Source: Phycicoccus sonneratiae (GTDB taxonomy: Bacteria > Actinomycetota > Actinomycetes > Actinomycetales > Dermatophilaceae). Taken from it: a stretch of DNA of 64,000 bases. Position numbers and translations under genes: made by a program. Numbering within the stretch: position 1 is the stretch's first letter; every line of letters begins with the position of its first letter. Shown here piece after piece: positions 40,509 through 44,517 of the stretch. The notes below the pieces were generated by a model, which saw only the letters and a list, made by a program, of their open reading frames with translations, made no database searches and had not been told where the DNA came from. Location of the stretch: positions 1 through 64,000 of the forward strand of contig NZ_JAFDVD010000005.1 of assembly GCF_016887965.1 (NCBI RefSeq). Reading direction: 5' to 3'.

Positions 40509-41069
40509 GTGGCCCGACGGCCCGTCGACGTGGCGCAGGTGGGGGAGGACCTCCACGCGGTCACCGCCTTGTGGCTCGAGGCCCGCGTCGACTCCGGCTC
40601 CAGCCCGGACGTCTGCGCCCGCACGATCGCCGACGGCCGGCTGTCGGCGGCGCTGCGCCGCCCGGGGGTCACCGCGTTCGTCGCGCACCTCGAGGGCGAG
40701 CCCGCCGGCTACGTCATCACCACCGACAACCCGTTCGGCATCAGCCCGACCCCCGAGGTGGCCATCGAGCAGCTCTGGGTGACGCCCGACGCCCGTCGGC
40801 ACGGGGTCGCCAAGTCGCTCATCGCCGCCGTCCTCGGCTCGGCCGAGCGCTCGGGCTGTGAGCTCGTCGTCTCGAACGTGCCGACGACCAGCCGCGAGGC
40901 CAACCGGTTCTTCGCCCGGCTCGGGTTCGGGTCGGTCGTCACGCGGCGGGTCGTCCCCACCGGCACGCTGCGCCGCAAGATCGCCCCGGAGACCGCCGAG
41001 ACCGGCCTCGAGCTGACCCGTCGGCGCCGCAGCCTCCGCCAGCGCGCCTTCCCCGCCCGCTCGGCCTGA
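40509..41069 (+). CDS. GNAT-family N-acetyltransferase
   Basis: The 186-residue product has a GNAT core with motif A EQLWVTPDARRHGVAKSLIA and motif B NRFFARLGFGSVV. An Arg-rich C-terminal tail (TRRRRSLRQRAF) follows. The substrate is unknown. The frame is open further upstream, but GTG 40509 has a GAGGAGG site at 40498-40504 and lies after the candidate promoter. The gene is followed by the hairpin repeat array. Confidence 0.85.
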   Translation: MARRPVDVAQVGEDLHAVTALWLEARVDSGSSPDVCARTIADGRLSAALRRPGVTAFVAHLEGEPAGYVITTDNPFGISPTPEVAIEQLWVTPDARRHGVAKSLIAAVLGSAERSGCELVVSNVPTTSREANRFFARLGFGSVVTRRVVPTGTLRRKIAPETAETGLELTRRRRSLRQRAFPARSA

Positions 41070-41089
41070 CGCCCGAGGCGCCTGCTGGG

Positions 41090-41132
41090 TCGAGGTGATG
41101 GTGGAGCGGATGCGGGTCTTGTTTCACCTCGA
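41090..41132. repeat. Hairpin repeat unit A1
   Basis: 43-bp unit with perfect 9-bp inverted ends TCGAGGTGA/TCACCTCGA. Its interior differs most from the other A units. Confidence 0.85.
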
Positions 41133-41153
41133 CCGCGGGTGGCACGGGTTGGG

Positions 41154-41196
41154 TCGAGGTATCCGGCCACCGTCAGGTGACGGCGGGATACCTCGA
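41154..41196. repeat. Hairpin repeat unit B1
   Basis: 43-bp unit with perfect 11-bp inverted ends TCGAGGTATCC/GGATACCTCGA and an inner 6-bp stem CCGTCA/TGACGG. Confidence 0.85.
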
Positions 41197-41219
41197 ACCG
41201 CTGTCGGACCCCCGCTCGT

Positions 41220-41262
41220 TCGAGGTGATGTGCGACCGGATGCGGGTCGGGTTTCACCTCGA
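41220..41262. repeat. Hairpin repeat unit A2
   Basis: 43-bp A-type unit exactly 130 bp after A1. Confidence 0.85.
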
Positions 41263-41283
41263 CCGCGGGTGGCACGTGTTGGG

Positions 41284-41326
41284 TCGAGGTATCCGGCCAC
41301 CGTCAGGTGACGGCGGGATACCTCGA
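41284..41326. repeat. Hairpin repeat unit B2
   Basis: 43-bp B-type unit, identical to B1 and exactly 130 bp after it. Confidence 0.85.
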
Positions 41327-41349
41327 ACCGGTGTCGGACCCCCGCTCGT

Positions 41350-41392
41350 TCGAGGTGATGGGCGACCGGATGCGGGTCGGGTTTCACCTCGA
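41350..41392. repeat. Hairpin repeat unit A3
   Basis: 43-bp A-type unit exactly 130 bp after A2. Confidence 0.85.
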
Positions 41393-41413
41393 CCGCGGGT
41401 GGCGCCTGCTGGG

Positions 41414-41456
41414 TCGAGGTGATGTCCGACCGGATGCGGGTCGGGTTTCACCTCGA
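41414..41456. repeat. Hairpin repeat unit A4
   Basis: 43-bp A-type unit 64 bp after A3, without a B unit between. It ends 17 bp before the stop of the DUF1501 gene. Confidence 0.85.
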
Positions 41457-41473
41457 CCGCGGGTGGCGCCTGC

Positions 41474-42790
41474 TCAGGTGCGGGCGCGGGCCAGGCCGAG
41501 GCGGGCCGACGGGACCCCGGGCAGCACGGTCGAGGCGGTGAGCCCGCAGCGCTTCTCGAGCAGCTCGGCGAGCACCGAGCGGTAGTCGGTCGTCGCCCGG
41601 AGGTCCCCGGCCTGCAGCTGGTCGGCCGCGAGCCCCGGCCAGGTGCCGTACACCTGCCCACCGACGACCCCGCCGCCGAGGACGAACGAGAAGTTCCCGT
41701 AGCCGTGGTCGACGCCGCCGGAGCCGTTCTCGGTGACCCGGCGCCCGAACTCGGAGAGGGTCACGAGGGTCACCCGGTCCGCCGCGGCGCCGAGGTCGGT
41801 CATGAACGCCGCGAGCGCCCGGCCGACCTCGGTCAGCTGGCGGAACATCCAGCCGTTGTCGCTGCGGCCGAGGTCGGTGTGCATGTCCCAGTTGCCGGAG
41901 TCGATGGTGACCGCCCGCAGGCCGACCCCGGCCTTGACGAGGCGGGCGGTGTCGCGCAGGGCGTCACCGAGGGCACCCGAGGGGTAGGAGGCCCCGCCCG
42001 ACGGCGTGTACCCGGCCGAGCGCAGCGCGCCGGCGGTGGAGAGGGCGTCGAGGGTGACCGTGGCCGGGGCCCCGATCGGTTCGGGCGCCCCGGCGTGCAG
42101 GGCGCGCAGCGCCGTGGTCCAGCGGGTCGACTCCGTGGCGTCCCAGGCCGCGTTGAGGCTGAACGAGTCGACCGAGCGCATCGCGAGCTCCGGCGTCGGC
42201 CCGAGCATCGCCCGCGGCGCGCTCGTCGCCCCGACGGCGCTCGAGGCGAAGGGTCCGGGGGTGGTCGTCGCGCCGACCATCCGGTCGAGCCACCCGGTGC
42301 GCAGCGACGACCCGGGTGCGGCACGCTCCATCTCGTCGAGGTCCGTGAAGTGCGAGCGGGTGGGGTTCGGCTGCCCGACGGCGTGGACGACCGCGAGCTT
42401 CCCGCCGGTGTAGAGGGGGAGCAGCGGTGCCAGGGCCGGGTGCAGGGCGAACCGGCTCGTCAGCTGCAGGCCCCGGGCCTGCGGGACGGCGATCGACGGC
42501 CGCGCCGTGTAGTACTCGGGGTCGCCGACGGGCGCGACGACCGAGAGACCGTCGATGCCGCCACGGAAGGACAGGACGACGAGGGTGTCGCCGGTGTACC
42601 CGCTGTCGGCGAAGGTGAGGCGGGTCAGCGCCTCGGCGGGGGAGGCCATCGCCACCGTGGCGCCGGCCGCACCGAGCGTGGCGGCCCCGGCGAGCACGCC
42701 CCGTCGGGTCGGGCCGGAGACGGCGACGCCCTCGGGGCAGCCGCAGGCGCCCATCGTGGGAGAGGGGGTCGAGCGGGTCGGCAGGGTCAT
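41474..42790 (-). CDS. DUF1501 protein with Tat signal
   Basis: The 438-residue protein has a twin-arginine signal near residues 30-58 (GPTRRGVLAGAATLGAAG), so it is probably exported folded. The DUF1501 domain (sulfatase/alkaline-phosphatase-like fold) shows LVVLSFRGGIDGLSVVAP, NWDMHTDLG and LSEFGRRVTENGSGGVDHGYGN. These proteins nearly always occur with DUF1800, as here. The function is unknown. ATG 42790 has a GAGGA site 6 bases upstream and lies 8 bp after the DUF1800 stop. Confidence 0.9.
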   Translation of the reverse strand: MTLPTRSTPSPTMGACGCPEGVAVSGPTRRGVLAGAATLGAAGATVAMASPAEALTRLTFADSGYTGDTLVVLSFRGGIDGLSVVAPVGDPEYYTARPSIAVPQARGLQLTSRFALHPALAPLLPLYTGGKLAVVHAVGQPNPTRSHFTDLDEMERAAPGSSLRTGWLDRMVGATTTPGPFASSAVGATSAPRAMLGPTPELAMRSVDSFSLNAAWDATESTRWTTALRALHAGAPEPIGAPATVTLDALSTAGALRSAGYTPSGGASYPSGALGDALRDTARLVKAGVGLRAVTIDSGNWDMHTDLGRSDNGWMFRQLTEVGRALAAFMTDLGAAADRVTLVTLSEFGRRVTENGSGGVDHGYGNFSFVLGGGVVGGQVYGTWPGLAADQLQAGDLRATTDYRSVLAELLEKRCGLTASTVLPGVPSARLGLARART

Positions 42791-42798
42791 CGTCGTCC

Positions 42799-44517
42799 TC
42801 AGCGGGTCGCGAACTCGGGGGTGTCGAGGAGCAGCGCCACGACGTAGGGCAGGCGCCACCCGACGGCGGCGTCGGTGCTGCGCAGCGGCGAGGCGGCGGT
42901 CTTGTCGAGGAAGGCGCACACGGCGTCGCGCTTGGCCGCGGGCAGCGGACCCTGGAGCAGCCGGAGGGCGAGCGCGTCGACGAGCGCGCCGTGCGTCGAG
43001 GGCAGCGTCGCCGGGAGGAGCGAGCGCAGCGGGGGGTAGGTGACGTCGGTCTGGGTCGCGTCGGACGCCGTCCAGCCCTGGCCCATCGCCCAGTTCCACG
43101 CCGTGAGCGTGGCGTTCGCACCCGCCCACGCGGCGGCGACGTCCGGGTAGCCGTTCGGGGCGGGCCAGCCGAGGGGCGCCTGCCCCGCGACGCGCGCGTT
43201 CCAGGCGAGGCCACCGAGCCAGTTCCGGGTGTTCTTCCCGGGAGCGACACCGAGGACGCGCGAGGTCGAGACCATCCGCTCCAGCGGGCGCTTGACCTTC
43301 TGGTTCGCCGAGGCCGCGAACTCCGGGGAGGCGAACAGGGCCCGCAGGACCGGCGCGAGCGCCGTGTCGTTCTGGGTGTAGACGGCCGCGAGGGCCGTGA
43401 CGAGGGAGTCCGGCGGGGTGTCGGAGACGAAGCGCACCGCGAGCTTGGTGGCGATGCGCCGGGCCGTCTTCGGGTGCCGCGCGAGGTGGGTCAGGTAGGA
43501 GACGGCGACCGTCTCACCGTCCGCGCTCGTGTTGGCGTGGCTCCAGCCGAGCAGGCTCAGCGCGCCGGTGTGGTGGCGGATCCGGCGGTAGAAGTACTCC
43601 CCGGACTCGTCGTCGGTCGACAGGCCGGTGAGGGCCAGCGCGGAGCGCCGGATGTCGGACTCGGCGTAGCCGCCGTCGACGCCGACCGTGTGCAGCTCGA
43701 GGACCTCGCGGCCGAAGTTCTCGTTCGGCGAGCGCTTCGTCGAGGACTCGTTGTCGAGCTGGGCGAGCATCGCGGGGTGCTTGGCGGCCGCGACGAGCAT
43801 GTCGGCGTAGCGGCCGAGGGCGTGCTTGCGGACGACGTCGACGTGGAAGCGGTGGACGCTGTCCCAGGTCTCGCCCCACGGCGCGGTGACGACGAGGTGG
43901 TTGGTCCAGAACTCGACCATCACCTCGAGCAGCTGCCGCTTCGACCACAGCGCGCGGGCCAGGACCGACTGGATGACCTCGTCGCCGAGGTCGCCGGTGC
44001 TGTTCGGCCAGTAGCGGTCGTGCACCTCCCACGTCGCGAGCGGCAGGAGCGGGAAGAGGCTCGTGACGAGGGCGTCGCACGTGGCGTCCGGCACGAGGCG
44101 CAGGGGGTCGAGCTGGTCGTCGACCCAGCCGGCCGCCCCACGGGCGCGGATCTCGTCGACGAGCTGGGGGGTCGCGCCGAAGGAGGCCCGGCGGGCGAGG
44201 TGCAGCGCGGTGGCGTCGGTCGTCGTGCCGGTGGCGACGCGGCCCACCGGGCGCCGGACCGAGACGATCGGGGTGGCCGTGAGGCGGAGCGCGGCGCGGG
44301 GACGGTAGGCGGCGTCGACGGCCCGGTCGCCCGGGACGGCGGCCGGCACCGCGGTCGGGGGCACGGCTCGCGGACGCTCGGCGGCCGGGAGCCGGGTGGC
44401 CCGCGCCGTGCGGCGGGCCGCGTCCTTCGCGCGCCCCGAGGGGTCGGACGCGACGGCGCGCGCGACGCCGGAGAGCAGGGCGGCGGCGGTCGAGCGGCGG
44501 GGCAGGGTGGGGCTCAC
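42799..44517 (-). CDS. DUF1800 protein
   Basis: The 572-residue protein has a Pro/Arg/Ala-rich first 100 residues and then the DUF1800 domain. The domain start is LHLARRASFGATPQLVDEI, followed by VMVEFWTNHLVVTAPWGETW, NENFGREVLELHTVGVDGGY and the C-terminal LGWPAPNGYPD. It is the operon partner of the DUF1501 gene. No clear signal peptide is visible, so if the pair works outside the cell its export route is unclear. The upstream 44518-44664 region shows no convincing promoter. Confidence 0.88.
   Translation of the reverse strand: MSPTLPRRSTAAALLSGVARAVASDPSGRAKDAARRTARATRLPAAERPRAVPPTAVPAAVPGDRAVDAAYRPRAALRLTATPIVSVRRPVGRVATGTTTDATALHLARRASFGATPQLVDEIRARGAAGWVDDQLDPLRLVPDATCDALVTSLFPLLPLATWEVHDRYWPNSTGDLGDEVIQSVLARALWSKRQLLEVMVEFWTNHLVVTAPWGETWDSVHRFHVDVVRKHALGRYADMLVAAAKHPAMLAQLDNESSTKRSPNENFGREVLELHTVGVDGGYAESDIRRSALALTGLSTDDESGEYFYRRIRHHTGALSLLGWSHANTSADGETVAVSYLTHLARHPKTARRIATKLAVRFVSDTPPDSLVTALAAVYTQNDTALAPVLRALFASPEFAASANQKVKRPLERMVSTSRVLGVAPGKNTRNWLGGLAWNARVAGQAPLGWPAPNGYPDVAAAWAGANATLTAWNWAMGQGWTASDATQTDVTYPPLRSLLPATLPSTHGALVDALALRLLQGPLPAAKRDAVCAFLDKTAASPLRSTDAAVGWRLPYVVALLLDTPEFATR

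What the first reader, a model, noticed from the sequence alone, without database searches (positions are those of the whole stretch)
41090..41456. Six 43-bp hairpin repeats in an A-B-A-B-A-A array between convergent genes
All six units are exactly 43 bp and share TCGAGGT...ACCTCGA inverted ends, but they come in two classes: A with TCGAGGTGA/TCACCTCGA and B with TCGAGGTATCC/GGATACCTCGA and a nested 6-bp stem. Spacers are conserved and alternate 21 and 23 bp, and the A-B composite has a 130-bp period with three differences between the copies 41133-41262 and 41263-41392. The two classes keep the same length, so both are probably maintained as one kind of element (REP/BIME-like, or an array for a dyad-binding protein). 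An additional role as a two-way terminator for GNAT and DUF1501 is possible.
Basis: seen in the sequence. Interest (0 to 1): 0.72.

Follow-up and report, generated by a model that had tools for sequence, protein, structure and literature searches.

The report
Dispersed hairpin repeats at gene ends
The array is one of about thirty places where a small palindromic DNA element sits just after genes in this soil actinobacterium; relatives carry it too, and it behaves like the well-known REP repeats of other bacteria although the enzyme that spreads those was not found.

Summary
In detail: six 43-bp dyads, A-B-A-B-A-A, spacers 21/23/21/23/21. They are not local. The window's genome holds about 52 class-A units at about 31 places; Phycicoccus, Terrabacter and Humibacillus carry mostly 43-44-bp versions with the same TCGAGGTGA...TCACCTCGA ends. 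In four genomes the dyads sit at gene 3' ends: 34 convergent, 48 tandem, 6 divergent and 3 undetermined of 91 sites, median 20 bp from the nearest stop codon. Many junctions are shared between sister species, yet gains are visible against element-free relatives. In one species the inner box changed genome-wide. Two insertion-sequence copies each split a dyad with a 15-bp direct repeat equal to its inner core, as known ISs do in REPs. RAYT (Y1_Tnp) was not found in 12 of 12 genus genomes, adjacent units mostly run head-to-tail, and there is no GTAG/CGTC tag: REP/BIME-like, but not a member of the described REP superfamilies. Most likely a non-autonomous dispersed palindrome, probably used as a strand-symmetric boundary at gene ends; the mobilising enzyme and any termination activity are not shown.

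The parts
41090..41132 (.). class A dyad, unit 1 (inner box diverged: GAGC/GGTC)
41154..41196 (.). class B dyad, unit 2 (TCGAGGTATCC...GGATACCTCGA)
41220..41262 (.). class A dyad, unit 3
41284..41326 (.). class B dyad, unit 4, identical to unit 2
41350..41392 (.). class A dyad, unit 5
41414..41456 (.). class A dyad, unit 6
41133..41262 (.). first 130-bp composite (spacer-B-spacer-A); second copy 41263-41392 with 3 differences
41070..41089 (.). 20-bp margin from the GNAT stop codon to the array
41457..41473 (.). 17-bp margin from the array to the DUF1501 stop codon
40509..41069 (+). GNAT acetyltransferase gene whose 3' end abuts the array (start codon as chosen by my gene finder)
41474..42754 (-). 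DUF1501 gene whose 3' end abuts the array

Best explanation
The array is a local expansion of a dispersed, non-autonomous palindromic element of the Intrasporangiaceae that behaves like REP/BIME elements. SHOWN: 43-44-bp dyads with a near-invariant outer box (GG)TCGAGGTGA/TCACCTCGA(CC), lying singly or in mostly head-to-tail arrays of 64-bp period just after stop codons; the window's array absent from the same junction in seven relatives and present in one sister; inner box used as the target of an insertion sequence. INFERRED: units arrive as ready-made copies at gene ends, probably because insertion there does least harm; they then multiply by tandem duplication of the 64-bp (A) or 130-bp (A-B) unit and are homogenised, so that a species can acquire its own inner box. 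INFERRED: once in place the stable hairpin, present on both strands, acts as a boundary for transcripts from either side (termination, pausing, or protection of mRNA 3' ends). The enzyme that copies it is unknown; no RAYT of the Pfam Y1_Tnp type was found.
For: Genome-wide: 104 CM rows = 52 places on both strands in G000; 86 rows in G009, 72 in HDW14. 3'-end bias: 34 convergent / 48 tandem / 6 divergent against 18 / 129 / 58 for 205 element-free junctions with at least 30 bp gap, convergent versus divergent p=2e-10; 40 of 48 tandem sites nearer the upstream stop; 67 of 84 sites within -10..35 bp of a stop. Other Intrasporangiaceae loci: 22 convergent, 20 tandem, 4 divergent of 60 clusters; in 10 of 47 the element itself supplies the stop codon. 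Gain: the GNAT/DUF1501 gap is 404 and 535 bp with arrays in two genomes and 7-81 bp without in seven; single-unit gain in G009 against G004 with a 98%-identical neighbour. Local duplication: 34 same, 3 opposite, 8 undetermined polarity among 45 A-A neighbours, spacer 20-22 in 42 of 45. IS target: two insertions, each 29+29-15 = 43 with the direct repeat equal to the inner core. Hairpins on both strands: four of six units folded, z -3.3 to -6.4; no sense/antisense difference, 38:38. Same placement and stop-codon supply are described for REPs (PMC3733652 section 15) and IS targeting of REPs (PMC1525189 Results).
Against: No Y1_Tnp in 12 of 12 genus genomes and no transposase among the 25 of 111 Pfam families shown for 74 of 103 neighbouring proteins. 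No target-site duplication at 44 single units. The outer box is shared between genera, whereas REP sequences usually differ between genera (recalled), which suggests a recognised site rather than a drifting parasite. Inner arms of A units pair less often than independent arms would (z -2 to -6), which is not what selection for a stronger terminator stem predicts. No transcript data.
Confidence: 0.55

Rival explanations
1. The dyads are double-stranded binding sites of a family-specific protein that marks or insulates gene ends (nucleoid protein, topoisomerase guide or termination factor). Outer and inner boxes are its half-sites; the 64-bp period is about six helical turns; the species-wide change of the inner box is co-evolution with that protein.
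For: Outer box near invariant within and across genera; 20-22-bp spacers in 42 of 45 A-A neighbours; genome-wide inner-box change in HDW14: GACC half-sites 15 of 62 against 91/94, 80/84 and 39/42; no covariation in arms; strand-symmetric.
Against: No candidate protein found or tested; four same-genus genomes give no model hit, so the site is dispensable; seven relatives lack it at the window's junction; invariance of the outer box is partly by construction, because copies were found with it.
Confidence: 0.2
2. The dyads are simply intrinsic transcription terminators without U-tracts, spread by selection at gene ends; sequence similarity comes from gene conversion.
For: Position a median 20 bp after stops matches the hairpin clusters close to stop codons proposed as terminators in 13 genomes (PMC8355165, passages); very stable folds; paired units common.
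Against: Terminators need structure, not one 9-bp sequence; no compensatory change in the interior; no U-tract found; only about 31 places in a 4.1-Mb genome; no model hit in four congeners.
Confidence: 0.17
3. The units spread by a known route that I could not see: a RAYT too diverged for Pfam, or an insertion sequence (perhaps the one that now targets the inner box).
For: Single-unit gain between sister species; an imperfect palindrome with a preserved unpaired stretch is typical of REPs and of folded single-strand substrates (recalled); an IS with 15-bp repeats recognises the inner core.
Confidence: 0.08

Closest known systems
REP / BIME (GTAG- and CGTC-tagged palindromes with RAYT; E. coli BIME-1/-2)
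   Same: Small imperfect palindromes, intergenic, next to 3' ends of convergent and tandem genes, sometimes supplying the stop codon, in singles, pairs and mosaics of two classes, targets of ISs
   Different: No Y1_Tnp/RAYT found in 12 of 12 genus genomes; no GTAG/CGTC tag; neighbours mostly head-to-tail where REP dimers are mostly head-head or tail-tail; about 50 copies, not hundreds; outer box shared between genera
Clustered-hairpin intrinsic terminators
   Same: One or more hairpins a short way after the stop codon, no U-tract needed
   Different: One fixed 43-bp sequence family; interior arms not covarying; found at few gene ends
Inverted DNA-uptake-sequence pairs (Neisseria DUS, Pasteurellaceae USS; recalled)
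   Same: A short box in inverted pairs after genes forming terminator-like hairpins
   Different: In the window TCGAGGTGA occurs 12 times, 8 of them in the array; single boxes were not counted genome-wide

Membership tests
REP/BIME (RAYT-linked) | Short imperfect palindrome, interspersed, extragenic | tested here: met
REP/BIME (RAYT-linked) | REP-associated tyrosine transposase (Y1_Tnp, PF01797) in the genome | tested here: not met
   0 of 12 genus genomes; rings in 5 of 14 controls including E. coli. Carriers of other genera were not searched
REP/BIME (RAYT-linked) | GTAG or CGTC tag at one end | tested here: not met
   consensus of 40 units with flanks is nGGG-TCGAGG...CCTCGA-CCCG
REP/BIME (RAYT-linked) | Dimers mostly head-head or tail-tail | tested here: not met
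   34 same, 3 opposite, 8 undetermined of 45 A-A neighbours; expectation from PMC3733652 passages
REP/BIME (RAYT-linked) | Location at 3' ends of convergent/tandem genes | tested here: met
   literature
REP/BIME (RAYT-linked) | Target of insertion sequences at a fixed point (common, not universal) | tested here: met
   two insertions, same point
REP/BIME (RAYT-linked) | Binds DNA gyrase, IHF or Pol I | not testable with these tools
   recalled property of E. coli BIMEs
U-tract intrinsic terminator | GC-rich stem followed by a T run | tested here: not met
   0 found in 40600-42000
U-tract-free hairpin terminator | Transcript ends at the hairpin | not testable with these tools
   no RNA data
Known Rfam RNA | Match above gathering score | tested here: not met
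   five matches up to E 5, best E 1.1, all far below gathering
Terminal-inverted-repeat MITE | Target-site duplication | tested here: not met
   44 single units: mean longest shared flank word 4.98 against 4.90 in shuffles

The most novel reading that the evidence does not exclude
A RAYT-independent class of interspersed hairpin in Actinomycetota, moved and homogenised by an unknown enzyme that recognises a folded single strand: conserved outer stem, preserved unpaired 5x5 stretch, inner stem, 7-nt loop. Its species-wide inner-box switch in HDW14 would be the trace of that enzyme (or of a gene-end binding protein) changing specificity, with most of its 24 sites following it.
Probability: 0.25. 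Interest if true: 0.75.

Novelty: new variant of a known kind. Interest (0 to 1): 0.52.

Why it matters
REP elements are explained by a domesticated Y1 transposase. Here is a family with REP-like placement and behaviour, shared by several genera, in a genus where that transposase was not found. It offers a natural experiment: congeners with about 50 units, with few and with no hit; visible gains between sister species; and a species in which the inner box changed nearly everywhere. That makes the questions 'what copies such palindromes' and 'do they do anything at gene ends' directly testable. It also warns annotators that such intergenic arrays are not CRISPR and not unique to one locus, and that IS insertions in them break assemblies.

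Tried and rejected
CRISPR: spacers of 20-23 bp resemble each other and the flanks; rejected. Known RNA family: no Rfam match. U-tract terminator: none. RAYT-driven REP: no Y1_Tnp. TIR-type MITE: no TSD at 44 singles. Uptake-sequence pairs: few single boxes in the window; not counted genome-wide. RNA-strand element: polarity against transcript 32:29 and fold stability 38:38, so no preferred strand. Chromosome-position signal: largest gap P=0.15 in G009, 0.007 in HDW14; inconsistent, not pursued. Plasmid relatives of the IS end: none. A pattern for class B over the loci had a wrong length (44) and found nothing; B was counted by script instead, only near A units, so 'B never stands alone' is biased except in the window's genome, where the six exact TCGAGGTATCC hits are five in A-containing arrays and one inside a gene. 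The orthologous-unit test and arm tests used 43-mers only; 42- and 44-mers of Phycicoccus were dropped. The gene calls are from a simple codon-usage finder of my own, not a standard annotator; start codons are approximate.

Full report
WHAT IS THERE. Spacers are 21/23/21/23/21 and the two 130-bp composites differ at three positions. Four of the six units were folded on both strands: -20.8 to -35.9 kcal/mol, z -3.3 to -6.4. The array fills the gap between convergent GNAT and DUF1501 genes, leaving 20 and 17 bp to the stop codons.

HOW MANY. In the window's own genome (4.11 Mb, 33 contigs) the loose pattern gives 71 places on each strand against 0 for the reversed control, some of them in coding sequence (list cut). 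A covariance model of 40 A units gives 104 rows, that is 52 places read on both strands. Class-A consensus, oriented: TCGAGGTGA-n5-GACC-n7-GGTC-GGGTT-TCACCTCGA; the right arm is constant and the left n5 variable, so the element has polarity. Because copies were found through the outer box, its invariance is partly by construction.

WHO HAS IT. The genome shares its genus with G011 and G004, whose contig lengths equal Phycicoccus sp. HDW14 and P. jejuensis NRRL B-24460 records; Phycicoccus is in the Intrasporangiaceae. Of these, 66 are from Intrasporangiaceae by title: Phycicoccus, Terrabacter, Humibacillus, an isolate named only to the family, and single candidates in Janibacter, Knoellia and Intrasporangium. 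Terrabacter and Humibacillus units are mostly 44 bp with another inner box (GGCACC..GGTGCC); some are perfect palindromes. Of the other 45 stretches, 35 have the hit inside a called gene and look like chance; 10 do not, and two of these, both from Desertihabitans aurantiacus, have paired interiors (9 of 9 and 6 of 9) and GG-T/A-CC flanks like true members, so the family may reach beyond the Intrasporangiaceae. Of 58 genomes searched with the model (own included) 15 have a hit at E<=0.01, but several of the weak ones lie inside genes. In the genus, G000, G004, G009 and G011 are rich, G005 has some, G002 two diverged members, and G006, G007, G008 and G012 no hit.

WHERE IT SITS. I fetched the model's places of G000 and G009, all but one weak place of G011, and 13 stretches of G004, and called genes with a small codon-usage finder. 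Of 91 sites, 34 are convergent, 48 tandem, 6 divergent, 3 lack a neighbour. Element-free junctions with at least 30 bp of gap in the window and the same stretches: 18, 129, 58. Convergent against divergent: odds ratio 18, p=2e-10. In 40 of 48 tandem sites the element is nearer the upstream stop than the downstream start. The nearest stop is within -10..35 bp in 67 of 84 sites, median 20; in 5 of 84 the TGA of TCGAGGTGA is itself the stop. In 55 further Intrasporangiaceae loci chosen by title out of 111 (two more Phycicoccus strains among them; HDW14 and P. jejuensis left out as already counted): 60 clusters, 22 convergent, 20 tandem, 4 divergent, 8 inside a called gene, 6 undetermined; 10 of 47 supply the stop. 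This is the placement described for GTAG and CGTC REPs (PMC3733652, section 15 read).

HISTORY OF SITES. Both flanking genes are homologous (at least 65% identity) in 10 site pairs between G000 and HDW14 and 10 between G004 and G009, one flank in 9 and 2 more (list). So many sites are inherited. But the GNAT/DUF1501 gap is 404 bp in G000 and 535 bp in HDW14, both with A/B arrays, and 27, 28, 18, 12, 81, 7 and 19 bp without units in seven other genomes of the genus; three genomes have no match for the gene. A second junction carries a single unit only in G009; G004, with a 98%-identical neighbour gene, and the other genomes do not show it in the stretch printed (G003 ends 9 bp after the stop). 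Units are therefore gained whole. No target-site duplication was seen at 44 single units.

ARRAYS. Of 45 adjacent A-A pairs, 34 have the same polarity, 3 opposite, 8 undetermined; 42 spacers are 20-22 bp; 33 A-B adjacencies and no B-B. B units were accepted only near an A unit, so their dependence on A is not proved outside the window's genome. Same-direction units with similar spacers point to tandem duplication of a 64-bp or 130-bp segment.

CONCERTED CHANGE. GACC is the inner half-site in 91 of 94, 80 of 84 and 39 of 42 half-sites of G000, G009 and G004, but in 15 of 62 of HDW14, where GGGCC (24) and GCACC (17) prevail. HDW14 is the nearest of these to G000 by shared sites and by the DUF1501 protein, 90%. 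I gave the loop test 15 G000/HDW14 and 12 G004/G009 junction pairs; pairs lacking a 43-mer dropped out. Loops of G000 and HDW14 are no more alike than at random (262 of 500 shuffles as good); those of G004/G009 are (6 of 500). So units at old sites were replaced or homogenised in the HDW14 or G000 line, except a few such as the L274/L334 pair, which still looks orthologous.

STRUCTURE OR SEQUENCE. In G000 the arms show no covariation. Pooling both arms, inner columns pair less often than independent arms would in all four genomes (z -5.9, -2.4, -2.0, -2.3) and in 75 44-mers of other genera (z -2.3); B units do not differ from independence (z -0.3); the outer nine columns lean the other way (z 2.5, resting on two doubly changed units). 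Polarity alone produces some of this deficit. Reading: the interior is not selected as a longer stem. Sense and antisense folds of 76 tandem-site A units are equal, 38:38, and polarity is random to transcription, 32:29, so whatever it does is strand-symmetric.

INSERTION SEQUENCE TARGET. Four contig ends of G000 stop inside a dyad with two terminal sequences beginning TGTGTTTTGAAGGG and TGTCCTGTGAAGGG. They pair into two insertions: left and right pieces of 29 + 29 bases share a 15-bp direct repeat, GACCGCGAGAAGGTC in one and GACCGGATGCGGGAC in the other, leaving 43 bp when the repeat is counted once. The repeat is the inner core. I searched 53 of 54 ends of the 27 readable long contigs; the termini occur in these four only. 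Copies in the unreadable short contigs or inside long contigs are not excluded by that call. Known REP-targeting ISs likewise hit one point in every copy (PMC1525189, Results read). TGT ends and 15-bp repeats occur in the IS481/IS1202 group (PMC10045372, passages); the family here is a lead, not a result.

NO MOVER FOUND. PF01797 gives 0 of 12 genus genomes and rings in 5 of 14 controls. Of 103 neighbouring proteins in G000 and G009, 74 were scanned; 111 Pfam families matched, only the 25 most frequent were shown, none of them a transposase and none in more than four proteins. A rarer transposase among the other 86 families is not excluded.

VERDICT. It works like a REP/BIME family and fails three membership tests (RAYT, tag, dimer orientation), so I call it REP-like, a new variant. 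I found no description in print in ten full-text searches, of which I saw listings, plus the abstract and one passage of PMC12306157, passages of PMC8355165 and PMC10045372, and passages and one section each of PMC3733652 and PMC1525189; one search held 262 papers with the nine letters and I saw ten titles.

Noticed in passing
G004/G009 loci L301, L305, L345, L342, L299, L383: A second interspersed inverted-repeat family (stretches of about 110-240 bp, arms such as CCGACT..TTGCGA / TCGCAA..AGTCGGG and GTTCGCTCC..GGAGCGAAC) seems to lie inside or beside several dyad arrays.
   Followed up: no
L144:102-143 and L173:1094-1135: Two dyads in Desertihabitans aurantiacus, outside the Intrasporangiaceae as far as I recall, with GGTTCGAGGTGAT..ATCACCTCGAACC ends, not in a called gene.
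   Followed up: partly
HDW14 chromosome, about 3.95 Mb through the record start to 1.09 Mb: No dyad in 1.21 Mb (P=0.007 under uniform placement); G009 shows no significant gap.
   Followed up: partly
L243 and L256 (another genus of the family); L246 and L259 (G002): Diverged relatives: TCGAGGTAA..TTACCTCGA ends in one genus, and different interiors in G002.
   Followed up: no
G000 contig ends C10, C12, C17, C23: Assembly breaks caused by an insertion sequence sitting in dyads; ends TGTGTTTTGAAGGG / TGTCCTGTGAAGGG, 15-bp direct repeats.
   Followed up: yes
HDW14 locus L393/L394: The orthologue of a gene beside a G009 dyad matches in two separate pieces.
   Followed up: no
window 41474-44517: DUF1501 and DUF1800 genes side by side, a common pair of unknown function (recalled).
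   Followed up: no
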